A DNA stretch of 64,000 nucleotides from Flavihumibacter soli. GTDB lineage: Bacteria > Bacteroidota > Bacteroidia > Sphingobacteriales > Sphingobacteriaceae. The notes under the pieces are model-generated. The model searched no databases, had not been told where the DNA came from, and saw only the letters and a program-made list of their open reading frames with translations. The translations under genes were made by a program, and so were the position numbers. Below are positions 3,508 through 61,790 of this stretch, one piece after another (position 1 is the stretch's first letter; every line of letters starts with the position of its first letter). Where the stretch lies: assembly GCF_010692725.1 (NCBI RefSeq), contig NZ_JAAFZB010000092.1:1-64000 (forward strand), given 5' to 3'.

Positions 3508-3561
3508 AGCTGATACCTGATAGCTGACACCTGACAGCTATTCGCTGTTACCTGACAACTA
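3508..3561 (-). repeat. Heptanucleotide array starting at the CHRD stop codon
   Basis: On the minus strand eight consecutive heptamers follow the consensus AG(G/C)TRTC (AGTTGTC, AGGTAAC, AGCGAAT, AGCTGTC, AGGTGTC, AGCTATC, AGGTATC, AGCTTGT). The last two bases of the CHRD stop codon TAG are the first two bases of the first heptamer. Confidence 0.75.
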
Positions 3562-4431
3562 TTTCTTGAACTCAATTTGACCCCTGATTTCTCCTCCAGG
3601 GTTCAGCGGAGTGTGCATATTAAAATAGTAAAGACCATCGAGCAGGGCCGGTTCTTTAAGAGCCACTTCGTCCACTACAACCCAGTTGGTAAAACTTCCT
3701 GTGATAACTTTCGGAATAAGCGCGAAAAAATCATGCTTGATCGGCGCATTAACTCCTCTTGCGGCCTCTCCATGTATATGGGCGCCGGTAGGAATTCCTG
3801 ACAGACCAGTCCAATTGATGGTGTAAGTCAGGACCTTGTTGGTTTTGTTATAGGAAACATCGAAAGTGCCGCAGGCTCCGGTGTTCTTGGCCGGTACTTC
3901 CTGTGCGCCTTCCAGCAGCGCGCCCTTTCTACTGACGATCTCAGGCTTGGTAAATTCAATCTGACCCCTGATCTCACCGCCGGGGTTGAGCGGGGTGTGC
4001 ATATTGAAGTAATAAAGTCCTGCAAGGAGCTCTTTTTCAAAGATCGCTGCCTCGTCAACCAGTACGGTGCCGGTGAAGGTGCCGGATGTGGTCTTCGGGA
4101 TCAGGTCGAAAAAGTCATATTTGATACCGGCATTTATTCCCCGTGGAGCGATGCCATGAATATGGGCGCCGGTGGGGATCCCTGACAGGTCGGTCCAGTT
4201 GAGGGTGAAAGTCAGGATCTTGGTGGTTTTGTTATAGGAAATGTCGAATGTTCCGCAGGCTTTCGTGTCCTTTGGCGGTACTTCCTGGCTCGCTTCCAGC
4301 AGCAGGCCTGTTCTGCTGATCACTTCGTCTTCAGAGATTTCAAATGCCGGTTGTTCATTTTCCTTCGAACAAGCAGACAGCACCGCAATAGCGACGATTA
4401 TTGCTGAGAAGAATTTGTTGAAATTTTTCAT
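3559..4431 (-). CDS. Lipoprotein with two tandem CHRD domains
   Basis: 290 aa. Signal peptide with lipobox LSAC (Cys21) predicts a lipid-anchored envelope protein. Two near-identical CHRD domains follow (about 38-160 and 165-290), each with QEVPxK, CGTFDISYN/CGTFDVSYN, GIPTGAHIHG, YYFNMHTPLNPGGEIRGQIEF. CHRD is the chordin-derived beta-rich domain; bacterial copies have no proven function. The two halves are clearly an internal gene duplication, visible also at DNA level. The gene stands alone, ends in a heptamer array, and has no obvious partner nearby. Confidence 0.85.
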   Translation of the reverse strand: MKNFNKFFSAIIVAIAVLSACSKENEQPAFEISEDEVISRTGLLLEASQEVPPKDTKACGTFDISYNKTTKILTFTLNWTDLSGIPTGAHIHGIAPRGINAGIKYDFFDLIPKTTSGTFTGTVLVDEAAIFEKELLAGLYYFNMHTPLNPGGEIRGQIEFTKPEIVSRKGALLEGAQEVPAKNTGACGTFDVSYNKTNKVLTYTINWTGLSGIPTGAHIHGEAARGVNAPIKHDFFALIPKVITGSFTNWVVVDEVALKEPALLDGLYYFNMHTPLNPGGEIRGQIEFKK

Positions 4432-4600
4432 GTTTTCTGATTAAGGGGTAAAACAGAATATGAAAGATTATCTGACCGGAAATGGGGGGCGATAGACGGG
4501 ATTCTTAGAAGAATTAAGATCAGCGGTCAGGCTATTAAATTTAAGGAATTCTTCCGGTTAATTAGTTACTAATTTTAAATTGTTCGGAATGGTTATTTTT

Positions 4601-4651
4601 TAGCTATCAGGTTTCAGGTTTCAGGTAAGAGGTATCAGGTAAGAGGTATCG
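4601..4651 (+). repeat. Heptanucleotide array
   Basis: Short degenerate array of AGGTTTC/AGGTAAG/AGGTATC heptamers directly abutting the family E quadruplet. Both neighbouring genes are on the minus strand, so this array is not in their coding orientation and is not stop-anchored. Confidence 0.6.
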
Positions 4652-4652
4652 G

Positions 4653-4866
4653 AACCACCTCCGTCTCCCGATAAAGGATCGGGAGCCACCTCCGCCAGCG
4701 GAGGATAGTGCCTCGGATCGGTTTTAAGGATATTAAGGTTTTTTCCAGGCCATCATGAAGGTTTTCTTTCATTACATTATGTATGACACTGACTTTTCCG
4801 GTAGCACGGACATCTGTCCTCCGCTGGCGGAGGTGGACTGCCCCTATCGGCAGGACGGAGGTGGTT
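4653..4866. repeat. Mirror-nested REP quadruplet, family E copy 1
   Basis: R1 4653-4684 (CCACCTCCGTC, then an inner ATCGGGAG-type half), R2 4685-4715 (CCACCTCCGCCAGCGGAGG), about 95 bp of spacer, R2' 4812-4835 (CCTCCGCTGGCGGAGG) and R1' 4836-4866 (GGACGGAGGTGG). The outer and inner pairs are inverted, giving R1-R2-R2'-R1'. A second copy with homologous spacer lies at 6078-6269. Apart from this and the preceding array, the 4.43-4.93 kb gap shows no gene. Confidence 0.8.
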
Positions 4867-4904
4867 AATTCATCGAAAGTCAGGAAAGAATGCCATCATG
4901 AACA

Positions 4905-4936
4905 CAATTTCCCGCTTTTCTCCTTTCACCTTCCTA
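4905..4936 (-). repeat. Purine heptamers after the hydrolase stop codon
   Basis: On the coding (minus) strand the stop TAG runs directly into AGGAAGG-TGAAAGG-AGAAAAG-type heptamers. Short and degenerate, but the same arrangement recurs at many stop codons in this window. Confidence 0.45.
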
Positions 4937-5929: not shown

Positions 5930-5941
5930 AGGGTTGAGGTT

Positions 5942-6056
5942 TCTAGCTATCGGCTCCCGGCTTCAGTCTTTCAAGGTAACAGGTGAATAGGTTTCGGGTT
6001 TTGGCTTTCATCTCCTGGCGTTTGGTTTTCGATTGGCAATTGTCACTGAGAGCGAG
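5942..6056 (+). repeat. Degenerate heptamers plus a GTCACTCTGAGCGG fragment
   Basis: Loose AGGTAAC/AGGTGAAT/AGGTTTC heptamers (5970-6000) are followed at 6036-6056 by a damaged copy of the repeat seen intact three times at 8.2-8.46 kb (CAATTGTCACTGAGAGCG). The surrounding 5.93-6.37 kb gap has no gene. Confidence 0.5.
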
Positions 6057-6077
6057 CTCATTTGCTAGTTTATAAGA

Positions 6078-6269
6078 TCCACCTCCGTCTCCGATAAAGG
6101 GAGCCACCTCCGCCAGCGGAGGATAGTGCTTCGGAGCGATTTAGATATTATTAAAGTTTCCAGGCATTCGCTGACTTTTATTTTTATTTCATTTTGCTAC
6201 AACGATGAATTCCAATGTTGAACGGACCTTTATCCTCCGCTGGCGGAGGTGCCCGAAGGGGGAGGTGGT
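6078..6269. repeat. Mirror-nested REP quadruplet, family E copy 2
   Basis: R1 6079-6101 (CCACCTCCGTCTCCGATAAA), R2 6103-6133 (CCACCTCCGCCAGCGGAGG), R2' 6231-6251 (CCTCCGCTGGCGGAGG), R1' 6252-6269 (GGGGGAGGTGG). The interior (ATAGTGCTTCGGAGCG, TTTCCAGGCAT, GCTGACTTTT) aligns with that of copy 1, so the full unit, not just the palindromes, has been copied. Confidence 0.8.
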
Positions 6270-6310
6270 CTCATCTCTCAGCTTTTGGTTTTCTGTTTTC
6301 AAACTCCCAT

Positions 6311-6337
6311 AAAAAAGCCGGCAAATCTGCCGGCCTT
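6311..6337 (-). terminator. Intrinsic terminator of the S8 protease gene
   Basis: Stem GCCGGCA (6317-6323) with TGCCGGC (6328-6334) and loop AATC; on the minus strand it is followed by the T run complementary to the As at 6311-6316. It lies 35 bp past the protease stop codon. Confidence 0.8.
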
Positions 6338-6371
6338 TATGGTTTGCTACTTTTGGATCAACCCAAACTAT

Positions 6372-7790: not shown

Positions 7791-8066
7791 GGTGGTGGTT
7801 TTAAAGTGAAATGTTATTGAAGTATTATTTTTTATTTATAAACGAATTGCTGAGAAATCAAATACCGGGATAATCGGAAGAACGGCGCTTCAAATACTTA
7901 TTTCAGAACGGAAATACGCTACAAATAATATTCTGCCTCGACACAGATTAAGCTTAAAGAAGAAGGGATACGGGATCTTTTTGAGTATTCTTAAATCTAA
8001 ATACATACTTCAGTCAAATCAACTTTCTGCACGATATTGTGTACTGAAAGCGGGAAACTGTGTAAT
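7791..8066. other. Intergenic DNA upstream of the S8 protease
   Basis: AT-rich leader region of the minus-strand protease gene. I see no ORF with coding character, no clean CAAAnnTA (-7 box on the minus strand) and no strong hairpin. The heptamer arrays begin at its right edge. Confidence 0.5.
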
Positions 8067-8186
8067 AGGTATCAGGTAGGAGGTATCAGGTAAGAGGTAT
8101 CAGGTATCAGGTAAGAGGTATCAGGTGTCAGGTAAGAGGTATCAGGTGGGAAGCTGTCAGCTATCAGCTATCAGCCATCAGCTTTT
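8067..8186 (+). repeat. Heptanucleotide array (AGGTATC/AGGTAAG)
   Basis: Array of AGGTATC, AGGTAGG, AGGTAAG, AGGTGTC and AGGTGGG heptamers passing into AGCTATC/AGCCATC heptamers. The period of 7 is kept although individual units differ by 1-3 bases. Confidence 0.75.
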
Positions 8187-8201
8187 GGTTGGGTAACAGG
8201 T

Positions 8202-8458
8202 ATCAATTGTCACTCTGAGCGGAGTCGAAGAGCGACCACCGGGAAACTTTTTTAATAATTGCACGGCGCCTTCTGTAATTTTTATAAGATACCGGACTGC
8301 CAATTGTCACTCTGAGCGGAGTCGAAGAGCGACCGCTGTGTAATACCTATAGATTTCGGAGCTGCCAGGAGGTAACAGGTTCCAGGGAAGAGGTATCAGG
8401 AAACAGGTATCAGGTTTCAGGTATCAATTGTCACTCTGAGCGGAGTCGAAGAGCGACT
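8202..8458 (+). repeat. Three direct copies of a GTCACTCTGAGCGGAGTCG repeat
   Basis: Near-identical copies of about 34 bp at 8202-8237, 8301-8334 and 8424-8458 (CAATTGTCACTCTGAGCGG then AGTCGAAGAGCGAC). After the second and third copies the identity continues into GCTGTGTAATAC. Similar motifs are, to my knowledge, common in Bacteroidota intergenic DNA. Heptamers (AGGTAAC/AGGTATC) lie between copies 2 and 3. Confidence 0.8.
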
Positions 8459-8496
8459 GCTGTGTAATACAGGTAACGGGTGGGAGGTATCAGGGC

Positions 8497-8604
8497 AGCT
8501 TTCTGCTTTCACCTTTCGGCTTTTACCTTTCTACTTTCACCTTCCATCCTTCCACCTTCCATCCTCCCTCCTTAATTCTTAATTCTTAATTCATAATTCT
8601 TAAT
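8497..8604 (-). repeat. Heptamer array anchored at the HEAT-like gene's stop codon
   Basis: Read on the minus strand from the gene end: GGAATTA, AGAATTA, TGAATTA, AGAATTA, AGAATTA, AGGAGGG, AGGATGG, AAGGTGG and so on through AAGGTGA-type units. The stop TAA lies inside the first heptamers. Confidence 0.7.
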
Positions 8605-9226
8605 TCCTAACTCTCCCAATCACCTTCTCCACTCTTTTCCGCTTGCTTTCCTTCTCAAATTCGCCCATCCTTGACATCAGTAATTCCAGGAAGCCGGCTT
8701 TGAATTTAGCTGAGATAACCGGCAGAGCATTCTCTGCGTACATGGGCAGCTGGTTAGGCGGACAGGAGCTCAGCTGACCCAGCAATAATATAAATGCTTC
8801 ATCATGATAGTCCTTGCTGCCCGCGAGCTTGATGAGGATGCTTACCGCGTGATCTTTGCTGATGACTGAGCCTTTATCGGCGGCGTCCAGGATCTTCGGG
8901 AGATTTTGCCAGATAATGTCCGGGTGGATATTGCTGATGCTGTCCAGTGCTGTCATTGCGCCCCATACCAGGCGGTTGTTTTTACTGTCCAGCAGCGATA
9001 TAAAAGTTTCGTGGTAAGGAGAGATCAGTTCCGGCTTTCGTTCCCCGATCTCATAAAGCACCTTCATGCAATCGCTTTGGATTGCTTTATCCTTGTGCAC
9101 CAGGTTTTCGATAAGTTCCCGGACAGCCTCCCGGTCTTCGGTACCGGCGATTAGGAGAGCCAGTTCCTGGTTAGGAACTTCATCCCTGCGGCCCAGTGAA
9201 CTTGAAAGTTTTTCAATTATGGTCAT
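8600..9226 (-). CDS. HEAT-repeat-like protein
   Basis: 208 aa, no signal peptide or membrane segment. The chain is a series of paired amphipathic helices with HEAT/ARM spacing (EDREAVRELIENL, DCMKVLYEIGE, NRLVWGAMTALDSIS, AVSILIKLAGS, ENALPVISAKF). It ends in a Lys/Arg-rich tail (SKRKRVEKVIGRVRN). HEAT-like repeats usually make protein or nucleic acid scaffolds. No enzyme motif is present. The gene lies between two heptamer arrays with no obvious operon partner; function unknown. Confidence 0.65.
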   Translation of the reverse strand: MTIIEKLSSSLGRRDEVPNQELALLIAGTEDREAVRELIENLVHKDKAIQSDCMKVLYEIGERKPELISPYHETFISLLDSKNNRLVWGAMTALDSISNIHPDIIWQNLPKILDAADKGSVISKDHAVSILIKLAGSKDYHDEAFILLLGQLSSCPPNQLPMYAENALPVISAKFKAGFLELLMSRMGEFEKESKRKRVEKVIGRVRN

Positions 9227-9229
9227 TTC

Positions 9230-9481
9230 AGCTATCAGGTATCAGGTAATAGGTATCAGGTAATAGGTATCAGGTAATAGGTACCAGGTATCGGGTATCA
9301 GGTATCGGGTATCAGGTAGTAGGTATCAGGTATCAGGTAATAGGTATCAGGTAATGGCAAACGGTTTGAGGTATCAGTTTAGAGGTTGTGCTTTTCGCTT
9401 TTTTCTGCTTTTCGCTTTCTGCTTTCACCTTTCTGCTTCAATCCTTATTCCTTGATCCTTATTCCTTGATCCTTTTCATCC
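9230..9481. repeat. Two-sided heptamer array between the HEAT gene and alkB
   Basis: 9230-9356 is a + strand array (AGGTATC, AGGTAAT, AGGTACC, GGGTATC). About 9390-9481 switches polarity: on the minus strand, starting at the alkB stop, the units are TAAGGAT, AAGGATC, AAGGAAT, AAGGATC, AAGGAAT, then AAAGCAG/AAAGGTG. The two halves are thus inverted relative to each other. Confidence 0.75.
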
Positions 9482-10087
9482 TTACAGCACGATGGTCCGG
9501 AATGTCAGGTTGATCCTAGGCCTGGTTATTTTCTTCGTTGGCGGCAGCCGGTGCAGCCAGTTCGTCTGCGTGGTATCTTTCATCACCAACAGGCTGCCGT
9601 GTTCCAGAACCAGTGATATAACCTGTTTACTTACCTTATGTTTGAAAGCGAATTTGCGCTCAGCACCCAGGCTTATGGAGGCGATGGTCGTATTTAATCC
9701 CAACGCTCTTTCGCTATCGCTGTGCCAGGCCATACCCTCATCACCGGTATGATACAGGTTGAGGAGACAGGAGTTAAACCGGGCGTTACTTTTCTGCTCG
9801 GCCAGCTCCTTCAGTTCCAGGAGTTCCTTTGTCCATGGCAGCGCCTCCTTCGTGGTGTTCGAGTAGGTATAAGCATACTGCTCATCGCCGTACCAGGCAA
9901 CCTTGCGTTTGGTAATGAGGTGCTTGCCCATGATCACCGCTTCATCGTTCTTCCAGGCTATCGTTTTTAACAGAGTATCAAAGTAGGCATTTGCTTTATC
10001 GTATTTAATAACCTGGCCATAATAGTTGACAGTTCCATCGGCGGGAAGGATGTTGGTGTTTTCATCCCGGAAGTTAAAGAGGTCCAT
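9482..10087 (-). CDS. alkB: AlkB-type 2OG-Fe(II) DNA dealkylase
   Basis: 201 aa. Jelly-roll 2-oxoglutarate/Fe(II) dioxygenase of the AlkB family: metal ligands His122 and Asp124 (WHSDSE) and His179 (WLHRLP), 2OG-binding Arg residues at 191/197 in RINLTFR, and the YHTGDEGMAWHSD segment before the HxD. AlkB enzymes remove methyl groups from 1-methyladenine and 3-methylcytosine oxidatively. Last gene of the alkylation-repair operon; its first 14 bases overlap the end of the Ada zinc-domain gene. The residue pattern is closer to ALKBH2/3-like bacterial proteins than to E. coli AlkB, judged by eye. Confidence 0.9.
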   Translation of the reverse strand: MDLFNFRDENTNILPADGTVNYYGQVIKYDKANAYFDTLLKTIAWKNDEAVIMGKHLITKRKVAWYGDEQYAYTYSNTTKEALPWTKELLELKELAEQKSNARFNSCLLNLYHTGDEGMAWHSDSERALGLNTTIASISLGAERKFAFKHKVSKQVISLVLEHGSLLVMKDTTQTNWLHRLPPTKKITRPRINLTFRTIVL

Positions 10088-10319: not shown

Positions 10320-10323
10320 TCTG

Positions 10324-11037: not shown

Positions 11038-11056
11038 GTCTCGCAGGTTTCTGAGG

Positions 11057-11994: not shown

Positions 11995-12135
11995 ATACCG
12001 GAACACATGTGATATTGTTAATGTGATAATTTGCTGATGGGATAATGTGCTAATGAGATAATTTGCTAATGTGTTAATTCGGCTAAACCCTCTTCAGCAG
12101 ATTATCATACTATCATATTATCACACTATCATATT
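11995..12135. repeat. Inverted 7-8 bp repeats between the two repair operons
   Basis: Left part: GATAATTTGCTGATGG, GATAATGTGCTAATGA, GATAATTTGCTAATGTG. Right part: TATCATAC, TATCATAT, TATCACAC, TATCATAT. The parts are roughly reverse complementary (GATAAT versus ATTATC) and could pair imperfectly. They occupy the shared promoter region, so regulation is possible but unproven. Confidence 0.6.
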
Positions 12136-14361: not shown

Positions 14362-14538
14362 GATACCCGCTACCTGCTACCCGATACCTGATACCTTATA
14401 CCCGCTACCCGATACCTGCTACCTGCTACCTGCTACCCGATACCTGCTACCTGCTACCCGATACCTGCTACCCGATACCTGCTACCTGCTACCCGATACC
14501 TGCTACCAGTTACCTGCTACCCCACACCTGCTACCTGA
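14362..14538 (-). repeat. Heptanucleotide array anchored at the T9SS cargo stop codon
   Basis: On the minus strand the final Arg codon and stop (AGG TAG) are the first heptamer AGGTAGC, followed by AGGTGTG, GGGTAGC, AGGTAAC, TGGTAGC, AGGTATC, GGGTAGC and about 18 further units. It is the longest uninterrupted array in the window. Confidence 0.85.
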
Positions 14539-16003
14539 TGATCGTTACCGAGCCTTTGACCGGTTGGCTATCCGTTTTCAGGTCAATTACATAGTAATAA
14601 ACGCCGGTTGGCAGGGGCTCACCCTTAAAACTGCCGTCCCACTGCTGGGTATAGCCAACACTTTGAAAAACGATCTGGCCGTAACGATTGAACACGCGGA
14701 TCCGGGCATCGGGGTAGGTTTCCAGTGCGGCGATTGACCAAAAGTCGTTTACCATATCAGCGTTAGGCGTAAAGGCATTGGGAACAACCAATTTTTTCAG
14801 AACCCGTATGCTGACCTCATCGACCGCTGTACTGCTGCAGCCATCATCCGACATCACATTCAGTGTATAGGTGACATCTTCCGTCGGACTGGATACCGGG
14901 TTCAGGATGTCAGGATTATCCAAATAATAACCCGGCGACCAGAAGTAGGTCAGGTTATCTCCCGTAACCTTACCATTCAGTGTAATTGACTGGCCTTCCA
15001 TAACCACGCGGTCCTCCCCGGCATCCGCTGTCGGCTTAGCCTTTACCTCGGTAAACAGGCTGTCGGATACCACCCGGCAGTTAGGGGAATTAATATTGAT
15101 CCCCTCTGCCACAGCCAGTCGAAAGCGGTAGCCTTCACGGTTGACGATCGGGATCTCCAGAGTGTATGATGCCTGTGTGGCACCTACGATGTCCTTCCAG
15201 CCTGTGCCGTCCAGGCTGTTCATCTGCCACTGGAAGGATGGGGAGATATAGCCTGCAGAAATGTCTGCATCCAGCTGAACGGTTCCGATTTCTCCTTCGC
15301 ACAAGAGGTTATTGTTACCCGAAAACGGTTGACTTTCGGCTGTTATGGTGGGACCGCATGCGCGGAAGGTTATGTCGTCGAGCGCGAGATCATTGCCGAT
15401 CCCGCCCGGAGCATTGTTTGTCAGGCGGATAACTACCTCCTCGACGCCGGGCAGCGTTGTAAAGAAGAAGCCGTGCTGTTTCCAGGTAGCGCTCGGCGTT
15501 TCTGGAATGTCACCCGTATTGTATGTACCGAGAATAGTTCCGCTGGTACTTTCAATGTTGAAGGTGAGGTTGGGTTTTATGGTGTTGCCGTTGCCTCTGA
15601 GCACATTCACGACCCAGGCAGCAAACTCATAGGTCGTGCCTCCGCATAGGCCGCCTACCCGCTGGATATAAAAATCGCTGGGATCATAAGAGGCATTGAT
15701 CAGCATCATATTGCCGGATATATCATTAGGCGTATGATCTTCGGGAACATTATGCCAGGTGTTGTTAAAGCATGGGGACATCTGGGATGTCATTGTGTAA
15801 AGCCCATCGTCCGGGCAGGAAATTGAAGTATATCGGTAGGAGGTAACACCAGGAGGGAGGGGTAGGGCCGCCGCCGCGCCGGCACCAAAGGTGATATTAA
15901 CCACCGGGTCTCCCAGGCTCCCGTTACAGGTCTGAGCCTTGCCCTCCGGGGAAGAAAACAGGATAGGGAGGAGTGCAAGAAAAAACAGTGTTAAAAATCT
16001 CAA
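14531..16003 (-). CDS. T9SS type B cargo (gliding motility-associated C-terminal domain)
   Basis: 490 aa. Sec signal peptide (about 1-23). A jelly-roll domain follows (about 95-215, ending LALDDITFRACG), then Ig-like segments with a PKD-like domain (about 330-400; DAGEDRVVMEGQSITLNG). The C-terminal module (about 405-490; VPNAFTPNADMVNDFW, FNRYGQIVFQS, WDGSFKGEPLPTGVYYYVI) is the CHU_C/type B sorting signal. That module directs secretion across the outer membrane by the type IX system and surface attachment. Probably a surface adhesin; no catalytic motif. Confidence 0.9.
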   Translation of the reverse strand: MRFLTLFFLALLPILFSSPEGKAQTCNGSLGDPVVNITFGAGAAAALPLPPGVTSYRYTSISCPDDGLYTMTSQMSPCFNNTWHNVPEDHTPNDISGNMMLINASYDPSDFYIQRVGGLCGGTTYEFAAWVVNVLRGNGNTIKPNLTFNIESTSGTILGTYNTGDIPETPSATWKQHGFFFTTLPGVEEVVIRLTNNAPGGIGNDLALDDITFRACGPTITAESQPFSGNNNLLCEGEIGTVQLDADISAGYISPSFQWQMNSLDGTGWKDIVGATQASYTLEIPIVNREGYRFRLAVAEGININSPNCRVVSDSLFTEVKAKPTADAGEDRVVMEGQSITLNGKVTGDNLTYFWSPGYYLDNPDILNPVSSPTEDVTYTLNVMSDDGCSSTAVDEVSIRVLKKLVVPNAFTPNADMVNDFWSIAALETYPDARIRVFNRYGQIVFQSVGYTQQWDGSFKGEPLPTGVYYYVIDLKTDSQPVKGSVTIIR

Positions 16004-18757: not shown

Positions 18758-19123
18758 ATGAGTAATTTAAGAAACAGTGTTCGCCTGGTTGGATTTCTGG
18801 GCAGAGATCCTGAAGTAAAGTTGTCTGCAAACAACAAGAAAGTTGCGCGGGTATCCATAGCTACCAACGATTCTTACAAAAATGATAAAGGCGAAAGGGT
18901 AGAAGAGACCCAGTGGCATAATTTAGTTATGTGGGATAAGACCGCTGCGTTTGCCGAGAGTTACCTGCATAAGGGTACGGAAGTGAGCATCGAAGGCCGT
19001 CTGACTAATCGTGTTTACACAGATAAATCGGGGGTTAAAAAATACTACACGGAAGTGGTAGTAAACGAGATCATGTTCGCCGGGCCAAAAAGAGAAAATG
19101 GCGGGTCGGAGACGGAGATATGA
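18758..19123 (+). CDS. ssb: Single-stranded DNA-binding protein, short form
   Basis: 121 aa. OB fold typical of bacterial SSB: NSVRLVGFLGRDPEVK, KKVARVSIATNDSYKNDKG, TQWHNLVMWDKTAAFAESYLHKGTEVSIEGRLTNR and the YYTEVVVNEI strand. It ends GGSETEI with no Gly/Pro-rich linker and no DDDIPF-type acidic tip, so it probably cannot recruit SSB-interacting repair proteins. Bacteroidota often carry several ssb paralogues; this looks like an accessory one. The stop TGA is the first triplet of a heptamer array, so the C-terminus may have been truncated by it. Confidence 0.9.
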   Translation: MSNLRNSVRLVGFLGRDPEVKLSANNKKVARVSIATNDSYKNDKGERVEETQWHNLVMWDKTAAFAESYLHKGTEVSIEGRLTNRVYTDKSGVKKYYTEVVVNEIMFAGPKRENGGSETEI

Positions 19124-19232
19124 GGTATCAGGTAACAGGTATCAGGTATCAGGTATCAGGTGTGTCAGGTGTCAGGTATCAGGTAACAGGTAACAGGTGT
19201 CAGGTACTTGATACTTGATACTTAATACTCTA
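19121..19232. repeat. Heptamer array shared by the convergent ssb and lipoprotein stops
   Basis: From the ssb stop: TGAGGTATC, AGGTAAC, AGGTATC (three times), AGGTGTC, AGGTATC, AGGTAAC (twice), AGGTGTC. Then come TGATACT/TAATACT units, which on the minus strand read from the lipoprotein stop TAG as AGTATTA, AGTATCA, AGTATCA. Polarity switches between the two gene ends. Confidence 0.8.
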
Positions 19233-19718
19233 ATTAAAACTCTCAAAACTTCTCCGTGTCAGAATTCCCGGCGTGGCATGATCTCCGGCTTTAAACCGGA
19301 AATCAACCGCTTCAATTTCGCCGACCTCGGTCAGGGAATAGGTTGCTTCCGCCAGGTAAACGCGCGCGCCTGCGGAGCCGATTTCCTGAGTTAAATAGCT
19401 AGCGTCTTCGATCCTGACGATGGCCTTGTTTCCTTCGATAGCCAGGGAATCGATCCTTATTTGCGGGTACTTTAGATTTAAAGCATCGATAATATCCTGC
19501 TCATTCAGGTTGCCGGGTCTGGCTACCGGGTTTTTTCTCATCTCCAGTAACTGCGTGCTGTCGTTGAAAGCAGCAATCCAGGGCACATCAAGTGTTTTTT
19601 CTGACTCGGGAACAGCCTCCTTCATTTCCGCTCCCTCAGACACCTGCTTTGGCGATCTCTCATTCTGACAGGAGGCAAGGAGCAGCAGGGCAAGGATGCT
19701 GAGAAGGAGATTTTTCAT
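19230..19718 (-). CDS. Hypothetical lipoprotein
   Basis: 162 aa. Signal peptide with lipobox LLASC (Cys17) and an acidic linker (about 20-45). The mature part has a repeated-strand pattern (IRIDSLAIEGNKAIVRIEDASYLTQEI, YLAEATYSLTEVGEIEAVDFRF) and ends near GILTRRSF. Possibly a small GerMN-like or beta-barrel fold, but no family is certain. It is 17 bp downstream of the SDR gene on the same strand and may be co-transcribed with it. Confidence 0.65.
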   Translation of the reverse strand: MKNLLLSILALLLLASCQNERSPKQVSEGAEMKEAVPESEKTLDVPWIAAFNDSTQLLEMRKNPVARPGNLNEQDIIDALNLKYPQIRIDSLAIEGNKAIVRIEDASYLTQEIGSAGARVYLAEATYSLTEVGEIEAVDFRFKAGDHATPGILTRRSFESFN

Positions 19719-29621: not shown

Positions 29622-30104
29622 ATGAATCCGAATCTAATTGCACGCATGCTGGTGATTGCTGCTGTCCTGGTTTCTGGCAGCTCATTAGCCCAGAATCCGT
29701 CGACCATAGCTGTCCGCAAGTCTGACAATACCCCCGTTGCCGTGCTGGCTACAGAGGAGGAAAAAATGGAAGTTGCCGAAGCGATCAAAAACGTGGAGTT
29801 TGACTTTGACCAGGCAGAGGTCAGGCCGGAAGCGTATAAGAACCTCGATGGTCTCACAGCCTGGCTGAAGGGAAAAGATGTGACGCTTAAGGTCTCCGGC
29901 TTTGCAGACGCGACAGGACCGAAGGACTACAATCGCGGTCTATCCGCCAGGCGTGCCCGGGCGGTAAAAGATTACCTGGTAATGAACGGTGCAGACCCTG
30001 CCCGGATTGACCCCGTGGGCTTCGGTGAAACGAATCCTGTTGCGCCCAATGATTCTGAATCAGGACGTCAGAAGAACAGGAGAGTGGAGTTTGGATTGTA
30101 TTAG
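29622..30104 (+). CDS. OmpA-family peptidoglycan-associated protein
   Basis: 160 aa. Signal peptide (1-24, SLA-Q). OmpA C-terminal domain (about 58-160): VEFDFDQAEVRPEAYKNL, VSGFADATGPKDYNRGLSARRA, VKDYLVMNGADPARI, VGFGETNPVAPNDSESGRQKNRRVEF, including the Asp and Arg that contact diaminopimelate. No beta-barrel domain, so probably a periplasmic peptidoglycan-binding protein. The stop TAG lies in the first unit of a heptamer array. Confidence 0.9.
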   Translation: MNPNLIARMLVIAAVLVSGSSLAQNPSTIAVRKSDNTPVAVLATEEEKMEVAEAIKNVEFDFDQAEVRPEAYKNLDGLTAWLKGKDVTLKVSGFADATGPKDYNRGLSARRARAVKDYLVMNGADPARIDPVGFGETNPVAPNDSESGRQKNRRVEFGLY

Positions 30105-30265
30105 GTATTAGGTATTAGGTATTAGGTATTAGGTATAGGTATCAGGTATTAGGTATCAGGTATTAGGTATTAGCAATCAGCTATAGGCTTAGCTTGCAGT
30201 TTCTCGTTTTAAATTATAATGCTATCAGCTATCAGCTTTCAGTTTATGGCTTTCAGCTTTCCGGT
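30098..30265 (+). repeat. Heptamer array anchored at the OmpA-like stop codon
   Basis: TTAGGTA/TAGGTAT heptamers run from the stop (TAT TAG), at least eight units, then AGCTATC/AGCTTTC heptamers from about 30217. After 30265 to 30660 I see no gene or clear repeat apart from scattered AGCTGA copies. Confidence 0.8.
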
Positions 30266-30660
30266 AACAGGCAATAGAATCAGTTCATAGCTATGCCGGG
30301 TATCATACTTCAACTTTTAGCTTCCGACCTACTTCCCAATTTAACCTCATTACCTCTAGGCTATCATCTGAAGCTGAAGCTGAACATGAGCCTAACAAAA
30401 ACTATAGTCGGTAATCATAAAGCTCTTTTTCCATCGTTAATTGCGTTGTAGCGGCCCCTGCACCAATATTTACAGCCTCCCAGTCATGCCAATGGAATGA
30501 AAAAGGGCAAGGAGGGTGTTCTGTAATATTTTTATAGGCGTGGGCTATTGCAAAATATTTTATTTAATTTAAGATAACATGTTTGAAATCATTTAATTAA
30601 CAGTGATTGATATATGGCTTAAAATTTTGAATAATGTGTTGTTGATCTAAATCCTATGTT

Positions 30661-37378: not shown

Positions 37379-38041
37379 ATGTTTACTCCAGTAGCACGTC
37401 CCGAAATTTTCCATTCATCTGTTTTTGCCGATAACTTAGTAGCCATATTCCAGGAGAGTTACGCATCGGGCATCGACCCTTCTGTCAGATCGGAAGCGGC
37501 TATGCTGAAGAAGTATTATGACCACTTAAAGCCCTTCCGGCAGATCGATCCGCCGATAGACGGTCACTGTGTACTGGCTTATGATGCCGGCAGCAAAGAC
37601 GACTATATCGCAACATTCCCGCTGGTAATGCAGAAGTTTTTAAATACACTGAACATCCGGAAGCTGTACCTTTTAAATTTTAACAAAACGAACCTGTACA
37701 GCTTTCCTTTCGAGAATTTCCGAAAGCTTAACCAGTTTAAGCTTCTGGGCGGGAGCAAAAAGGAAAACCTGGGATACCGCTTTAAAGTATCCGAATTGCA
37801 CCGGGGCTTTCCCCTGTTCTTTTTTTCGGGAGTCTACGATGTGCCTGTGGTATTTTTGATCACCGCCACCGGTGAAGTGCCGCTATCTTTACGTCTTTGC
37901 GATGATGGGAACCTGCACCTCAATTTCCAGGAAATCTACCGGCACCGGATAGAGGAGGCTGCTGCCCATGCAGGTTTTCTAATGGGAGATCTGGAAATCT
38001 GCAGCCGGTATGGGGTGAATCATTATCATCAGACGCGGTAG
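37379..38041 (+). CDS. Hypothetical protein
   Basis: 220 aa, soluble. Not recognised. Visible features are an even mix of helices and strands, HCVLAYDAGSKDDYIATFPL, a basic middle part, the hydrophobic FPLFFFSGVYDVPVVFLITATGEVP region without a membrane segment, and a C-terminal HLNFQEIYRHRIEEAAAHAG helix. Codon use matches clear genes nearby, so it is probably expressed. No operon partner. Confidence 0.55.
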   Translation: MFTPVARPEIFHSSVFADNLVAIFQESYASGIDPSVRSEAAMLKKYYDHLKPFRQIDPPIDGHCVLAYDAGSKDDYIATFPLVMQKFLNTLNIRKLYLLNFNKTNLYSFPFENFRKLNQFKLLGGSKKENLGYRFKVSELHRGFPLFFFSGVYDVPVVFLITATGEVPLSLRLCDDGNLHLNFQEIYRHRIEEAAAHAGFLMGDLEICSRYGVNHYHQTR

Positions 38042-48049: not shown

Positions 48050-48055
48050 TTCATT

Positions 48056-52278: not shown

Positions 52279-53526
52279 ATGGATACCCCGATTTCACAAG
52301 AGATAATATCACAGAATAAAAGAAAGACCGTACTTATCAGCCTGCTTTGCCTGGGCGTGCTCATAGCTGGCGTGTTACTGGTAAGGAGCTATTTTAAGTC
52401 AAGCATTGAGCGGGCAGATTTTACCACCGCCGTTGTCGGCACCGGTAATATTGAAAATACGATCACTGCTTCGGGGGAGGTGTTGCCTGAGTTCGAAGAG
52501 GTGTTAACCAGCCCGATCAACGCTTCCATTAAAAGCGCGCTGCTGGATGCCGGTACGCAGGTGAAAGCCGGGCAGGCTATCCTGATGCTGGATAAGTCGG
52601 CTTCCGAGAATGAATACCACAAACTGAAGTTCCAGCTGGAGAGCAAACGCAACGAGATCAAGAAGCTGAAGCTGAACCTGGATAAGAGCTTCTTTGATAT
52701 CCAGTCGAACAACGCCATCAAGCAGCTTCGCATTAGCAGCCTGCAGGACGCGGTGGAAAACGCCAAGCGCTTACTGAAAGCCGGCGGCGGTACCCGTGAA
52801 GATATCGAGCAGGCCGAACTGGCCCTGAAGGTTGCCCGCCTCGAGAAGGCCCAGCTGGAGAACGAGATCAAGAGCAAGCAGCAGACCATGCAGGTGGAAG
52901 CCCGCGAGGCGGTCATTGCCGCGCAGATCCAGGAGAACGACCTGCTGGAACTGGAAAGGAAACTGAAGCTTGCCAACGTCGTGACTACACGCAGCGGCGT
53001 CATCACCTACGTCAACAAGAACATCGGCGCGGCAGTCCGGGAAGGGGAGACCCTCGCCCGTATCGCCGACCTGGGCAGCTTTAAAGTTTCGGCCAGCGTT
53101 TCCGATGATTACCTCGAGCAGCTGCGCATGGGTATGCCGGTGATCGTCAAATACAATGAATCCCAGAAAAGGGGGCATGTGTCTAATATTTATCCCTCCA
53201 TCCAGAACGGCATCGTCACCTTCGACGTGCAGCTCGAAGAGCGCAACAACAAGCAGCTTCGTCCGAACATGAAGGTGGAGGTCTTCCTCGTGACCGCCGC
53301 ACATAATAACGTGATCCGCGTGGCTAATGGGCCGGCATTCAAAGGACTGGGTAAGCAGGATGTATTCGTGATCAATGGAGCTAAAGCCGAAAGAAGAACC
53401 GTCAGCCTTGGCCTCAGCAATTTTGATTTTGTAGAGGTTTTAAATGGGCTGAAGCCCGGGGAGGTGGTGATCAGCTCGGATATGAGTGAGTATGAGAACT
53501 CTAAAGAATTAAGAATTAAGAATTAA
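52279..53526 (+). CDS. HlyD/MacA-like periplasmic adaptor
   Basis: 415 aa. N-terminal membrane anchor (about 18-36). Biotinyl-lipoyl-like half motifs (TITASGEVLPEFEEVLTSP, then VTTRSGVITYVNKNIGAAV) flank a long coiled-coil hairpin (about 110-235, repeated LELKARL-type heptads). A beta-barrel (KVSASVSDDYLEQLRMGMPV) and membrane-proximal domain follow. Links the inner-membrane ABC permeases to TolC. Its last seven residues or so are encoded by AAGAATT heptamers that continue past the stop. Confidence 0.9.
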   Translation: MDTPISQEIISQNKRKTVLISLLCLGVLIAGVLLVRSYFKSSIERADFTTAVVGTGNIENTITASGEVLPEFEEVLTSPINASIKSALLDAGTQVKAGQAILMLDKSASENEYHKLKFQLESKRNEIKKLKLNLDKSFFDIQSNNAIKQLRISSLQDAVENAKRLLKAGGGTREDIEQAELALKVARLEKAQLENEIKSKQQTMQVEAREAVIAAQIQENDLLELERKLKLANVVTTRSGVITYVNKNIGAAVREGETLARIADLGSFKVSASVSDDYLEQLRMGMPVIVKYNESQKRGHVSNIYPSIQNGIVTFDVQLEERNNKQLRPNMKVEVFLVTAAHNNVIRVANGPAFKGLGKQDVFVINGAKAERRTVSLGLSNFDFVEVLNGLKPGEVVISSDMSEYENSKELRIKN

Positions 53527-53562
53527 GAATTAAGAATTACGATTTACGAATTACGAATTAGG
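53508..53562 (+). repeat. AAGAATT heptamer array at the HlyD stop codon
   Basis: AAGAATT repeated about four times, then ACGATTT and ACGAATT units. It covers the last HlyD codons, the stop and most of the gap to the TolC gene. A period of 7 (not 6 or 9) means the frame was not selected. Confidence 0.8.
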
Positions 53563-53571
53563 ATTGGGTCA

Positions 53572-55065
53572 ATGAAACTTACTTTATTATATAGATTACT
53601 GGGTAGCTCGCGGATGTTTCTGACACTGGTCATTTGCCTCGCAGGACTAAGAGGCTCCGCACAAGTAAACAGGGATACGATTCGTCTTAGCTTGACGGAG
53701 GTGGTAGAGCTGGCAAGGCAGAACTCCATAGCGGCCAAGCAGGCCGTTTCTGTCAAGGAGACCAAGTACTGGGAATGGCGGACCTTCAAATCCAATTATC
53801 AGCCCCAGCTTTCATTAAGCGGGAACCTGCCCGGTTACAGCAAGACCTATACACAGGTATTGCAGCCTAACGGAACGGTTTTGTTTCAGCCGGTGCGTCA
53901 TGATAATTCAAGCCTCGCGCTTGACTTCAGTCAGACCATTACCGCAACCGGCGGAACCGTTTTCGGCACCACGGAACTGCAGCGCTTCAACGACTTCGAC
54001 CGGAAGAATATTCTTTATAACGCCGTGCCTTACGCGATTGGCTACAGTCAGCCCCTGTTCCAGTATAACAGCCTGAAATGGGACAAAAAGATAGAGCCCC
54101 TGAAATACGATGAGAGCCGGCAGGCCTTCGTGGAATCGCAGGAGCAGATCTCGGTGACCGTGGAAGGTTATTTCTTCGACTTGCTGCTGGCACAGGTGAA
54201 CCTGCGGGTGGCGGAAAGTAATCTCAACAGTACCCGAAGTATCATGAAAGTGGCGAATGTCAAGTTCGAGCTGGGGAAGATCTCCAAGAACGAGATGCTT
54301 CAGTTGCAGCTGGAACTGCTGAACGCGCAAAAGGCGGTCGGCGTGGCTAAACGTAATATCCAGATAGCCACACTGACACTGCGAAGCTATATGGGCTATG
54401 AAGGGGATGCCGAGATCGCATTGAAAGTGCCTGAGACAATCAGTTCGATGGAGGTAAATGCCGAGAAGGTACTGGAAGAAGCATTCGCGAACCGTTCGGA
54501 TGCTATCGCATTCGGTCGGCGGCTTGCCGAGGCGAAACGCGATGTAGCCAAAGCGAAAGGGCAGAGCGGCCTGGTCGCTTCGCTGAACGCCAATCTCGGG
54601 TTCTCGAAAAGCGCCCCGCACCTTCCGGAAGTTTATCGTGCCCCGCAGAACCAGCAATTGCTGCAAGTGCAGTTTTCCATTCCGGTGATGGATTGGGGCC
54701 GCTCACGCTCCAGGGTGAAAACGGCGCTGACCAACCAGCAGTTCACCGAGTATGCGGTGGAACAGGACAAGCTGACCTTCCGCCAGGAGATCATCACGCA
54801 GGTGACGCTGTTCAACATGCTGAAGGAACAGATCGCTTCGAACGCACAGGCCGACAGCATTGCCGGCGAGAAATATCATATCGCCAAGGAACGGTACGTG
54901 TTGGGTGACCTGAGCATCACCGACCTCAGTATCGCCTTCCAGGAGAATGACCAGGCAAAGCGGGATTATATCAATGCCCTGCGTGACTATTGGGGAGCCT
55001 ATTACCAGCTTCGCTACCTCTCGCTATACGATTTTGAAAAGAGACAAAAGATCAATATTAAATAA
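53572..55065 (+). CDS. TolC-family outer-membrane channel
   Basis: 497 aa. Signal peptide (about 1-31). Two OEP domains with long helices: RLSLTEVVELARQNSIAAKQA, TRSIMKVANVKFELGKISKNEMLQL, ANRSDAIAFGRRLAEAKRDVAKAK, and the last helix KRDYINALRDYWGAYYQLRYL. Forms the trimeric outer-membrane exit duct of the efflux complex. Between adaptor and ABC genes, on one strand. Confidence 0.9.
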   Translation: MKLTLLYRLLGSSRMFLTLVICLAGLRGSAQVNRDTIRLSLTEVVELARQNSIAAKQAVSVKETKYWEWRTFKSNYQPQLSLSGNLPGYSKTYTQVLQPNGTVLFQPVRHDNSSLALDFSQTITATGGTVFGTTELQRFNDFDRKNILYNAVPYAIGYSQPLFQYNSLKWDKKIEPLKYDESRQAFVESQEQISVTVEGYFFDLLLAQVNLRVAESNLNSTRSIMKVANVKFELGKISKNEMLQLQLELLNAQKAVGVAKRNIQIATLTLRSYMGYEGDAEIALKVPETISSMEVNAEKVLEEAFANRSDAIAFGRRLAEAKRDVAKAKGQSGLVASLNANLGFSKSAPHLPEVYRAPQNQQLLQVQFSIPVMDWGRSRSRVKTALTNQQFTEYAVEQDKLTFRQEIITQVTLFNMLKEQIASNAQADSIAGEKYHIAKERYVLGDLSITDLSIAFQENDQAKRDYINALRDYWGAYYQLRYLSLYDFEKRQKINIK

Positions 55066-55085
55066 CCTTATCCAAACATAAAGAC

Positions 55086-55751: not shown

Positions 55752-55776
55752 TTTTCGCACCAGAAACAAGAAAGCC

Positions 55777-57006: not shown

Positions 57007-57026
57007 TCATCAATAAATAGAATATT

Positions 57027-58214: not shown

Positions 58215-58222
58215 TTACGACC

Positions 58223-59608: not shown

Positions 59609-60887
59609 GTATATCCTGTTTGTCGTTATCCTGCACCTGGTCACCCTGGTGCTTACCTACTTTATTTTCAAGGAGGATAAGCCGCTTTTTATCGTCGCCG
59701 AAGCCTTTATCATTCTTTCCATGGTGATAGCCTGGAACCTTTACCGGCAGCTGATCCAGCCGCTGAAAACGCTGATGGATGGTATGAGTGCCATCAGGGA
59801 CCAGGACTTTAATGTTAAGTTCCTGCCAACGGGCAAACATGAGGTGGATCAGCTGATCGGGGTATATAACCAGATGATCGACCAGCTGCGGCTGGAACGT
59901 ACCAAACAGGAACAGCAGCACTTCTTCCTGGAGAAGCTGATCTATACATCACCTACCGGGATCATCATCCTGGATTTTGATGAGCAGATCCAGCAGGTGA
60001 ATCCCCGTGCCTTACAGATCCTGAACCTGGAAGAGAAAGAACTGCTTAATCAGCAGATCGCCGACCTGGATAATACCTTTTTCAGGTATATCGCAACTCT
60101 CCGGACGGGCGAGACCAAAACGGTCAAGCTGAATGGAGCGGAGACCTACAAGATCCAGCGTTCCCATTTTATTGACCGGGGATTTGCCCGGAGCTTTATT
60201 ATGCTGGAAGAACTCACCACCGAGATTTTGATTGCCGAGAAGAATGCTTACGGTAAGGTGATCCGCATGATGGCCCATGAGGTGAACAATACGATCGGGC
60301 CGGTAAATTCGATCATTCAATCTGCCCTGCGGTCGAAAGGGCTTTGGAAAGAAGAAGACGGCCTTCTGCGGGAGGCGCTCCAGGTTGCCGCCGACCGAAA
60401 TCAGAACCTGAACCTGTTCATGCGCAATTTTGCTGACCTGGTAAAGCTGCCGGAACCGAATAAAAAGCGTCTTGACCTGCATCACTTCATCCGGTCCATA
60501 GTAGCATTGATGGCCCTCAGGCTTGGTGAAAAAGAAGTGGAATTGCTGGTCGATATCCCTGATGAACCTTTTTATATCCTTGCTGATGAGCAGCAGATGG
60601 AGCAGGCCCTGATCAACGTGTTAAAGAATGCCGCGGAAGCGATTGAAGGAAAGGGTACCATCATCCTGCGTTCCATACCTGCCGCAAAACAACTGGTTAT
60701 AACCGATACCGGGAAGGGCATCAGCCCTGAAACTGAAGAAAAACTTTTTACTCCTTTTTTCAGCACGAAAAAGGACGGTCAGGGAATCGGTCTTACTTTG
60801 GTCAGGGAGATACTGATGAACCATAATTTTACGTTTTCCTTAAAGACCGTCGGCGAAAAGCGCACCGAGTTTTGTATTACCTTTTAA
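59592..60887 (+). CDS. Membrane histidine kinase, partner of the sigma-54 regulator
   Basis: 431 aa from Met at 59592. Two transmembrane helices (about 6-24 and 32-50), HAMP linker, a PAS-like domain (about 115-215), the H-box MAHEVNN with His229, and HATPase_c motifs LKNAAEAI (N box), DTGKGIS (G1) and GQGIGLTLV (G2). Hardly any periplasmic loop, so the signal is likely sensed in or near the membrane. Ends the seven-gene efflux operon. Confidence 0.9.
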   Translation: MKLRTKYILFVVILHLVTLVLTYFIFKEDKPLFIVAEAFIILSMVIAWNLYRQLIQPLKTLMDGMSAIRDQDFNVKFLPTGKHEVDQLIGVYNQMIDQLRLERTKQEQQHFFLEKLIYTSPTGIIILDFDEQIQQVNPRALQILNLEEKELLNQQIADLDNTFFRYIATLRTGETKTVKLNGAETYKIQRSHFIDRGFARSFIMLEELTTEILIAEKNAYGKVIRMMAHEVNNTIGPVNSIIQSALRSKGLWKEEDGLLREALQVAADRNQNLNLFMRNFADLVKLPEPNKKRLDLHHFIRSIVALMALRLGEKEVELLVDIPDEPFYILADEQQMEQALINVLKNAAEAIEGKGTIILRSIPAAKQLVITDTGKGISPETEEKLFTPFFSTKKDGQGIGLTLVREILMNHNFTFSLKTVGEKRTEFCITF

Positions 60888-61066
60888 GAAAGTGATTTTT
60901 TTTTAACCTCTCAGCAGAAAATTCCTGAATAGCGCGATAGTATATTATCCCGTAGACAGGTATTTTTACAATGATTTTGATAATATACGTGATTTTGACA
61001 TATTTAAACACGAATTAATTCTTTTTCGGTTATTTAACTAATGTATTAACCAATATCGACCGCGAA

Positions 61067-61474
61067 ATGGAACACAACGGACAAATTAACGGGGTAAATG
61101 GGAACAAAACCAGGTACTCCGATGCGGAGCTTAAAGAATTCAGAGATCTGATCAATGACAAGCTTCGTATTGCAAGAGAAGAACTACGAACATTGGTAGA
61201 TTCATTAAACCAAACTGCTTTAAACGGAACGGATGACACGGCAAGTGCTTATAAAACGCTCGAAGACGGTTCTGCCAGCCTGGAGAAGGAATCTATCAAT
61301 CAGCTGGCGGCGCGACAACGGAAGTTTATAGAGAATCTTGAAAATGCATTATTCAGGATCGAGAACAAGAGTTACGGTATATGCCGGGTTACCGGTCAGC
61401 TGATACCAAAGGAAAGGCTTCGTGCAGTTCCGCACGCTACGCTGAGTATGGAGGCGAAAATGCGGCAAGAATAA
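61067..61474 (+). CDS. TraR/DksA-family protein
   Basis: 135 aa. Long N-terminal coiled coil (about 18-95) and a C-terminal zinc-finger-like region that keeps the TraR/DksA outline YGICRVTGQLIPKERLRAVP but only one of four cysteines. This C4-poor form is usual in Bacteroidota. DksA-like proteins bind the RNA polymerase secondary channel. Single gene with its own terminator; upstream there are two TGATTTTGA copies. Confidence 0.85.
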   Translation: MEHNGQINGVNGNKTRYSDAELKEFRDLINDKLRIAREELRTLVDSLNQTALNGTDDTASAYKTLEDGSASLEKESINQLAARQRKFIENLENALFRIENKSYGICRVTGQLIPKERLRAVPHATLSMEAKMRQE

Positions 61475-61500
61475 GATTCACAATTAAACCTTAATGGAAG

Positions 61501-61536
61501 GCGGCAGGTACCGAACGGTGCGTGCCGCTTTTTTTG
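61501..61536 (+). terminator. Intrinsic terminator of the DksA-like gene
   Basis: GCGGCAGGTACC (61501-61512) pairs with GGTGCGTGCCGC (61517-61528) apart from one mismatch and one wobble, followed by seven Ts. 26 bp after the stop codon. Confidence 0.85.
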
Positions 61537-61552
61537 TGTTGGATGAAGGAAC

Positions 61553-61790
61553 AAAGAGGAAGGAAGGATGGAAGGTGGAAGGAGGGAAGGTGGAAGTATG
61601 AGTAATAAGTAATAAGTAGTATGTAATAAGAATGGATAACTGATACCTACCACCTGATACCTGATACCTGATACCTGATACCTCATACCCAAAAGCTGAT
61701 GGCTGACAGCTGATAGCTCTCACCTGATACCTACCACCTGATACCTGATACCTCAAACCTGATACCCAAAAGCTGACAGCTGATACCTCA
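61553..61790. repeat. Two-sided heptamer array between convergent genes
   Basis: 61553-61625 (+ polarity, DksA side): GGAAGGT/GGAAGGA and TAATAAG heptamers. 61638-61790 (minus polarity, from the stop TGA of the 52-aa gene): TGAGGTATC, AGCTGTC, a 14-mer AGCTTTTGGGTATC, AGGTTTG, AGGTATC, AGGTATC, AGGTGGT, AGGTATC and so on. Confidence 0.8.

What the first reader, a model, noticed from the sequence alone, without database searches (positions are those of the whole stretch)
3508..61790. Heptanucleotide arrays begin at stop codons, with fixed polarity
Ten genes of unrelated function end inside or at the first unit of a 7-bp array: CHRD lipoprotein (3559), alpha/beta hydrolase (4934), HEAT-like (8600), alkB (9482), T9SS cargo (14531), ssb (19123), lipoprotein (19230), OmpA-like (30104), HlyD (53526) and the 52-aa protein (61788). 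Next to the stop, the purine-rich unit (AGGTATC, AAGAATT, GGAAGGT, TTAGGTA) is always on the coding strand. Several distal halves are inverted, so the transcript could fold back. The units supply the stop (TAG, TGA or TAA). Heptanucleotide repeats are known from cyanobacteria, but stop-anchored placement is, to my knowledge, not described.
Basis: seen in the sequence. Interest (0 to 1): 0.8.

Follow-up and report, generated by a model that had tools for sequence, protein, structure and literature searches.

The report
Seven-base repeats pointing out of genes
Short seven-base DNA repeats in this bacterium and its relatives butt against the ends, and often the starts, of genes with one strand nearly always pointing away from the gene; part of this pattern was reported before for other seven-base repeats, and it suggests that the repeats spread in one direction until a gene stops them.

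Summary
In a 1.25 Mb sample of this genome (Sphingobacteriaceae, probably Daejeonella) there are 105 period-7 arrays, 103 intergenic, none in shuffles. Of 98 with two flanking genes, 51 begin within 15 bp of a stop, against 10±3 expected. Beside stops the coding strand carries AG every seven bases. But start codons show the mirror image: arrays touching a start carry AG on the antisense strand. Pooled over this genome, 13 genus relatives and 80 family loci, arrays within 5 bp of an edge read AG outward in 79 of 89 (stops) and 25 of 25 (starts); beyond 60 bp it is 29 outward, 21 inward, 5 ties. Regions holding both orientations have the AG strands facing each other in 62 of 63. 'Stop-anchored, coding strand' is thus half of a gene-edge rule. 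Rehm et al. 2015 already reported sense-strand placement after stops and antisense placement before starts for G-rich heptamers in Xanthomonas and Nostoc. Generality over unrelated units, contact-dependence and facing order appear new. Best reading: one-directional array growth over expendable DNA, halted by selection at coding edges; the machinery is unknown.

The parts
3510..3554 (-). AGGTATC/AGCTATC array, 4 bp after the stop of 3559..4431(-), AG strand reading outward from the stop
4593..4648 (+). short AGGTATC-type array away from both edges (161 bp from a start, 285 bp from a stop)
8062..8182 (+). AGGTATC/AGCTATC array away from both edges
8370..8433 (+). AGGTATC array away from both edges
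8498..8613 (-). compound array AAGAATT, then GGAAGGT, then GAAAGGT/GAAAGC, overlapping the stop of 8600..9226(-) and reading outward
9228..9353 (+). AGGTATC array beginning 1 bp from the START codon of 8600..9226(-), AG on the antisense strand, i.e. outward
9390..9474 (-). AAGGATC/AAAGC array 7 bp after the stop of 9482..10087(-), outward
14364..14521 (-). AGGTAGC/AGGTATC array 9 bp after the stop of 14531..16003(-), outward
19115..19229 (.). array filling the whole intergenic region between the convergent ssb (stop 19123) and 19230..19718(-): AGGTATC on + from ssb, AAGTATC on - from the other stop
30079..30189 (+). TTAGGTA/AGGTATC array overlapping the TAG of the OmpA-family gene ending at 30104, outward
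30221..30277 (.). CAGCTATC/CAGCTTTC array 116 bp after the same stop
53504..53563 (+). AAGAATT array from inside the end of the HlyD gene (TAA at 53524-53526) to 8 bp before the next start at 53572
61541..61795 (.). compound array between stops 61474(+) and 61788(-): GGAAGGT and AGTAATA on +, AGGTATC on - overlapping the 61788 stop

Best explanation
The arrays are products of a directional, DNA-level repeat-spreading process, not signals placed at stop codons. New seven-base units are added at the 5' end of the AG strand (equivalently the 3' end of the CT strand), displacing or deleting the unique DNA ahead of it. Growth goes on until purifying selection on a coding sequence stops it. Arrays therefore end up in contact with gene edges only by their AG-5' side, so the AG strand reads outward from starts and stops alike; two arrays in one region end up with their AG strands facing each other; and stop edges are touched more often than start edges, because the DNA before a start (promoter, ribosome-binding region) is protected while the DNA after a stop is cheap. 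Where growth reaches a stop codon, it may be remade in register as TAG. Shown: contact-dependent outward polarity at both kinds of edge, facing order, TAG register, fewer terminator-like hairpins beside arrays, turnover of unit sequences between relatives. Inferred: growth direction, overwriting rather than insertion, and the role of selection. Unknown: the machinery; polymerase slippage with a seven-base step has been suggested in print for heptamers generally (cited in the discussion of PMC4692102).
For: Distance dependence, pooled: stops <=5 bp 79 outward, 4 inward, 6 ties of 89; 6-20 bp 11, 3, 0 of 14; 21-60 bp 6, 8, 0 of 14; >60 bp 12, 8, 4 of 24; starts <=5 bp 25 of 25; 6-20 bp 19, 0, 1 of 20; 21-60 bp 9, 1, 0 of 10; >60 bp 17, 13, 1 of 31. 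Edge-abutting versus interior 121:4 versus 45:30, ties left out, Fisher 2.7e-11 (counts; test). Facing order 62 of 63 regions: 41 tandem, 17 convergent, 4 divergent, plus the 1 exception. TAG in register 16 of 25 versus 1/7 expected; in 3 of 5 and 3 of 6 in the two relative sets. Stop edges of array-bearing regions lie within 5 bp of the array in 45 of 84, start edges in 12 of 70. Terminator-like hairpins at 3 of 97 array-touched stop edges versus 228 of 1430 in array-free regions (Fisher 2e-4; crude detector, regions >=60 bp); in ssb the hairpin-plus-T-run seen by eye in two relatives is replaced by array. At stop 283225 two orthologs without the array have TAA, this genome TAG plus array. 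One intergenic region (called aroA-aroC from recalled motifs): 35 of 63 family loci hold array windows of different units, 32 start outward from the left gene, 3 have only the right-hand array. AG columns are not better conserved than others between orthologous arrays (0.918 versus 0.911, 11 pairs; 0.865 versus 0.866, 19 pairs), as expected if AG comes from the process and not from selection.
Against: Growth direction is not seen directly. The gene-side half of arrays is not significantly more homogeneous than the distal half (36 higher, 22 lower, p 0.14; one of the three sets goes the other way). The array-free flank at starts already has an outward G excess (+1.42 per 35 nt; stops -0.04), so base composition may add to polarity at starts. 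Stop conversion rests on few orthologs: of three stop-locked genes with orthologs, two have TAA there, one (37496) has TAG without an array. Insertion and overwriting could not be told apart, because relatives are too diverged between genes. Two loci (L101, L116) have a +-+- block duplication. Some pooled loci are orthologs and not independent, and several relative pieces were chosen for repeat hits. Microcystis TAACTGA repeats in MacGregor 2015 face starts in both directions (6 forward, 8 reverse of the mapped sample).
Confidence: 0.4

Rival explanations
1. DNA-end extension and fusion: at an intergenic break both 3' ends are extended with AG heptamers and then joined, as in insertions of telomere repeats at breaks; the facing arrays are fusion scars, and repeated trimming brings them to gene edges.
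For: A 3'-end extension gives exactly the facing order (62 of 63); arms share sequence in 29 of 62 regions versus 10.6 expected; this genome has Ku.
Against: Many facing pairs still have tens to hundreds of bases of unique DNA between them (gap column), which a fusion should not leave. No RVT_1 reverse transcriptase is found in this genome (3 of 20 genus genomes have one). Ku does not track array density in small samples: G010 and G019 without Ku have about 80 per Mb, G005 and G015 with Ku 12 and 0. Interior arrays lack polarity.
Confidence: 0.2
2. RNA-level element: on the sense RNA the rule reads 'CU heptamers before the start, AG heptamers after the stop', so the arrays could act in mRNA 3' ends or leaders (termination, stability, protein binding, fold-back).
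For: The outward rule is formally the same as this sense-strand rule. Array-touched stops carry fewer terminator-like hairpins (3 of 97 versus 228 of 1430), so arrays might take over termination. Arms can pair in about half of the facing pairs. Rehm et al. found transcripts starting or stopping in G4-forming heptamers more often than in their controls (PMC4692102 section 15).
Against: Polarity is lost when an array lies more than 20 bp from its nearest stop (18:16), though it would still be in the 3' end. AG columns are not specially conserved. Units and presence turn over between close relatives. Two genus members had 0 arrays in 80 kb each.
Confidence: 0.15
3. Ordinary slippage repeats tolerated between genes, whose polarity merely reflects base composition next to genes.
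For: Period 7 is the most common intergenic tandem period in prokaryotes and slippage has been proposed (PMC6344855 discussion; PMC4692102 discussion). Array-free start flanks have a mild outward G excess (+1.42 per 35 nt).
Against: Array-free stop flanks have no skew (-0.04 in 406 edges; family loci +0.05 in 377), while array-bearing stop ends average +6.4. Insertional slippage alone does not bring an array into contact with a gene edge, nor give the facing order.
Confidence: 0.12
4. The arrays are parts of dispersed composite elements that move or duplicate as units.
For: A composite 'array + CAGCTTGTTTATCCCTCCGGTT' recurs, mostly in C95:742-780 kb and once in the window near 3491.
Against: Most arrays lack that tail, and the polarity table barely changes without C95:740-787 kb.
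Confidence: 0.05

Closest known systems
GGGAATC (Xanthomonas) and GGGGA(C/T)T (Nostoc PCC 7120) heptamer repeats, Rehm et al. 2015, PMC4692102 (abstract, passages, sections 13, 15, 16 read)
   Same: Seven-base unit, intergenic, mixed copy number and sequence, next to or overlapping stops on the sense strand, upstream of ORFs on the antisense strand, inverted pairs (in Xanthomonas), genes of all functions, no function found.
   Different: There one G-rich unit able to form G-quadruplexes per organism; here many units that share only AG every 7 nt, not GGG runs. Distances were binned at 50 bp there; contact-dependence, facing order and stop-codon register do not appear in the parts I read.
TAACTGA direct repeats of Beggiatoaceae, cyanobacteria and five Bacteroidetes, MacGregor 2015, PMC4679880 (abstract, sections 10 and 23 read)
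   Same: Heptamer repeats between genes. In Flexibacter litoralis 12 of 14 sets lie in forward orientation before starts and one in reverse after a stop; read outward from the gene that is TCAGTTA, with AG, so it fits the rule (my inference).
   Different: One fixed unit, mostly before start codons, read there as a translational regulator; the Microcystis sample has mixed orientations before starts.
Heptamer tandem repeats in a survey of 7006 prokaryote genomes (SPADE paper, PMC6344855; passages and discussion read)
   Same: Finds heptamers the most abundant intergenic tandem repeats over many species.
   Different: No polarity or placement rule in the parts read; states there is no clear clue to function.
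Interstitial telomeric repeats inserted at double-strand breaks (PMC7215372, PMC2246262; search listing only)
   Same: Short G-containing tandem units read toward a former DNA end; facing pairs resemble head-to-head fusions.
   Different: Telomerase with a fixed template; here no RVT_1 reverse transcriptase in this genome and units differ from array to array.
Cyanobacterial STRR heptamers (recalled; only listed)
   Same: Seven-base intergenic tandem repeats.
   Different: Not compared here.

Membership tests
Heptameric intergenic simple sequence repeats of bacteria | Tandem 7-bp unit, strongly over-represented between genes | tested here: met
   105 arrays, 103 intergenic, 0 in shuffles; period 7 far above other periods from 4 to 13
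Rehm-type heptamers (GGGAATC / GGGGATT) | Sense strand after stops, antisense strand before starts | tested here: met
   stops 79 of 89, starts 25 of 25 within 5 bp
Rehm-type heptamers (GGGAATC / GGGGATT) | Runs of three or more G per unit, able to form G-quadruplexes | tested here: not met
   Unit profile A 0.85, G 0.86, then G 0.44 here; G 0.07 at that position in family loci; units such as AGGTATC, AAGAATT, AGTATTT. No quadruplex assay or prediction was run
Rehm-type heptamers (GGGAATC / GGGGATT) | Preference for four units | not tested
   unit-number distribution not computed
MacGregor TAACTGA repeats | Unit TAACTGA, mostly just before start codons | tested here: not met
   The units listed are other heptamers, and within 5 bp stops are touched more often than starts (45 of 84 versus 12 of 70 edges)
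Telomerase-made interstitial repeats | Reverse transcriptase copying a fixed template | tested here: not met
   No RVT_1 (PF00078) match in this genome; many different units
Known RNA family | Match to an Rfam model | tested here: not met
   0 matches at gathering score in the window

The most novel reading that the evidence does not exclude
A general, undescribed bacterial process writes seven-base repeats in one direction along DNA, identified by an AG-bearing strand, replacing expendable sequence until it meets a gene. The heptamers of Bacteroidota, Xanthomonas, Nostoc and Flexibacter would be products of this one process, so the most common intergenic tandem repeat of prokaryotes would be a record of how far genes' edges are defended, including remade stop codons and lost terminators.
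Probability: 0.3. Interest if true: 0.8.

Novelty: new variant of a known kind. Interest (0 to 1): 0.55.

Why it matters
Heptamers are reported as the most abundant intergenic tandem repeats in prokaryotes, with no clear clue to what they do (PMC6344855 discussion). A contact-dependent, strand-specific rule at both ends of genes is such a clue: it points to a directional mutational process and away from a stop-codon signal, and it gives quantitative predictions (facing order, TAG register, loss of terminators) that can be tested in any genome with heptamers. It also cautions that gene ends and terminators next to such arrays may be recent and array-made.

Tried and rejected
Rejected: the stop codon as anchor (starts obey the same rule); RVT_1 reverse transcriptase as the maker; Ku end joining as a requirement (small samples); selection on the AG bases (no difference); gene-function bias was not tested beyond Pfam names. 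Led nowhere: gene-side versus distal homogeneity (p 0.14); C-terminal tails of proteins, where the 8 overlapping-array pairs all come from ssb; plasmid collection searches with two arrays (no match; the tool warns that simple repeats are filtered); Rfam (none). A recurring motif beside some arrays is regional. For the AAGAATT pattern the backwards control is uninformative, because the reversed unit is a rotation of the same repeat.

Limits: genes were called by my own hexamer script, not by a published caller; the AG orientation score takes the best of seven phases; some pooled loci are orthologs; the label in the output says 10 relatives, the table lists 13. The last part failed and was rerun.
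Full report
What was checked. The window is the first 64 kb of a 381 kb contig in a 4.44 Mb genome. A genus relative, G003, has a contig of the same length (899,307) as Daejeonella sp. JGW-45, so the genus is probably Daejeonella, Sphingobacteriaceae; this is inference.

Is it more than chance? 105 period-7 arrays score 14 or more, 103 intergenic, none in shuffled sequence; among the other periods from 4 to 13 only period 8 (22) is notable. 98 arrays have a called gene on both sides: 51 lie within 15 bp of a stop or overlap it, against 10.1+-2.8 at random between genes and 26.5+-3.0 at random within the same region; for starts 21 against 13.0+-3.5 and 18.5+-2.9. Of 53 gene ends with arrays, 46 have G>C on the coding strand, 5 the reverse; TAG is used in 25 of 53 against 222 of 987 overall.

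What the arrays share. Units differ (AGGTATC, AGCTATC, AAGAATT, AGTATTT, AGATATG, AAGGAAC, GGAAGGT and others), but on one strand all the common ones have AG every seven bases: five AGs at period 7 occur at 97 places, at other periods from 4 to 12 at 0 to 12. The mean unit profile is A 0.85, G 0.86 and then loosely G/T-A/T-A/T-T here, and A 0.82, G 0.83 in family loci.

Polarity belongs to gene edges. In this genome, arrays touching one edge (within 20 bp) read AG outward in 39 of 41 at stops and 13 of 13 at starts, where outward means antisense. In 13 genus relatives: stops 23 of 30 (2 inward, 5 ties), starts 11 of 11. In 80 Sphingobacteriaceae loci: stops 21 of 21, starts 14 of 15 (1 tie). 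In 17 loci from other Bacteroidota genomes, found with one exact AAGAATT pattern in 17 of 296 genomes, 12 of 13 edge contacts are outward by my reading of the table; the exception, L241, is a compound array. Pooled by distance, outward:inward is 79:4 (6 ties) within 5 bp of stops, 11:3 at 6-20, 6:8 at 21-60 and 12:8 (4 ties) beyond; for starts 25:0, 19:0 (1 tie), 9:1 and 17:13 (1 tie). The rule is one of contact. Array-free flanks show no such skew at stops (-0.04 per 35 nt) and a mild one at starts (+1.42).

Facing order. 63 intergenic regions hold both orientations; in 62 the AG strands face each other, in 1 (L182) they do not. 41 of the 62 are tandem regions, so gene direction does not matter. 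The arms share 8-mers in 29 of 62 regions (10.6 expected by permutation, at most 18 in 500), so some can fold, but folding does not explain the order.

Stop codons. At 16 of 25 TAG stops the AG of the stop is in register with the array (1 in 7 expected). At 283225 two orthologs have TAA without array, here TAG with array; at 37496 the ortholog has TAG without array. Proteins with arrays starting at or after the stop keep their C-termini (both tails <=2 residues in 79% of 19 ortholog pairs, against 65% of 148 pairs without arrays); ssb, overlapped by 9 bases, has an altered tail. Terminator-like hairpins follow 3 of 97 array-touched stops and 228 of 1430 in array-free regions (7 of 85 where the array is elsewhere in the region).

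Turnover. The ssb region is syntenic in eight genomes: all array here, short with a hairpin in G003 and G018, other or partial arrays in the rest. In an intergenic region I take for aroA-aroC (recalled motifs), 35 of 63 family loci hold array windows with different units; 32 begin outward from the left gene, 3 have only the right-hand array, and two (L101, L116) carry a duplicated +- block. Between orthologous arrays AG columns are no better conserved than others. In untargeted pieces, density ranges from 0 per Mb (G013, G015; 80 kb each) to 183 per Mb (G003; 60 kb).

How it most likely works. On the sense RNA the rule can be restated as CU before starts and AG after stops, so polarity alone does not exclude an RNA role. 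Contact-dependence does argue against it: a 3'-UTR element should keep its polarity 30 or 80 bases after the stop, and these do not. A directional process explains contact, polarity, facing order, TAG register, the start/stop imbalance (45 of 84 versus 12 of 70 edges within 5 bp) and lost terminators together: units are added at the AG-5' end over expendable DNA until a coding edge. I give it 0.4, because growth direction was not observed and the homogeneity test is not significant. DNA-end extension with fusion is the main rival. RVT_1 is absent here, and Ku does not track density.

What is known. Rehm et al. 2015 describe sense-strand placement within 50 bp of stops, with overlap, and antisense placement within 50 bp before starts for G-rich heptamers in Xanthomonas and Nostoc. 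MacGregor 2015 describes TAACTGA sets in Bacteroidetes whose orientation in Flexibacter fits the same rule, and a Microcystis sample that does not. The SPADE survey calls intergenic heptamers the most abundant and unexplained. Seven paper searches showed no statement of the facing order, contact-dependence or stop register; the library is open-access only and papers were read in part.

Noticed in passing
window 3480-3560 and G000:C95:742-780 kb: Composite repeat: an AGGTATC/AGCTATC array followed by CAGCTTGTTTATCCCTCCGGTT, many copies in one 40 kb stretch.
   Followed up: partly
window 8205-8460: Three copies of a segment containing 'caattgtcactctgagcggagtcgaagagcgac' between the arrays.
   Followed up: no
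window 12007-12135: Period-8/16 arrays (ATGTGATA-type and a facing TATCATAC-type), a second repeat period; period 8 is the only other notable period in the sample.
   Followed up: no
window 3181-3360 and 4660-4870: Repeated CCCCGTAGGGG-type and CCTCCGCTGGCGGAGG-type palindromic words between genes.
   Followed up: no
window 18758-19123: The ssb C-terminus (last ~10 residues) differs from seven relatives and ends inside the array.
   Followed up: partly
L101 9639-9976 and L116 7042-7422: A whole +- array block with its centre is duplicated side by side in the region taken for aroA-aroC.
   Followed up: no
genus relatives G013, G015, G005 versus G000, G003, G010, G014, G018, G019: Array density differs from 0 to 183 per Mb in small untargeted samples within one genus; the sparse genomes are smaller (2.3-3.4 Mb) than most of the dense ones.
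   Followed up: partly
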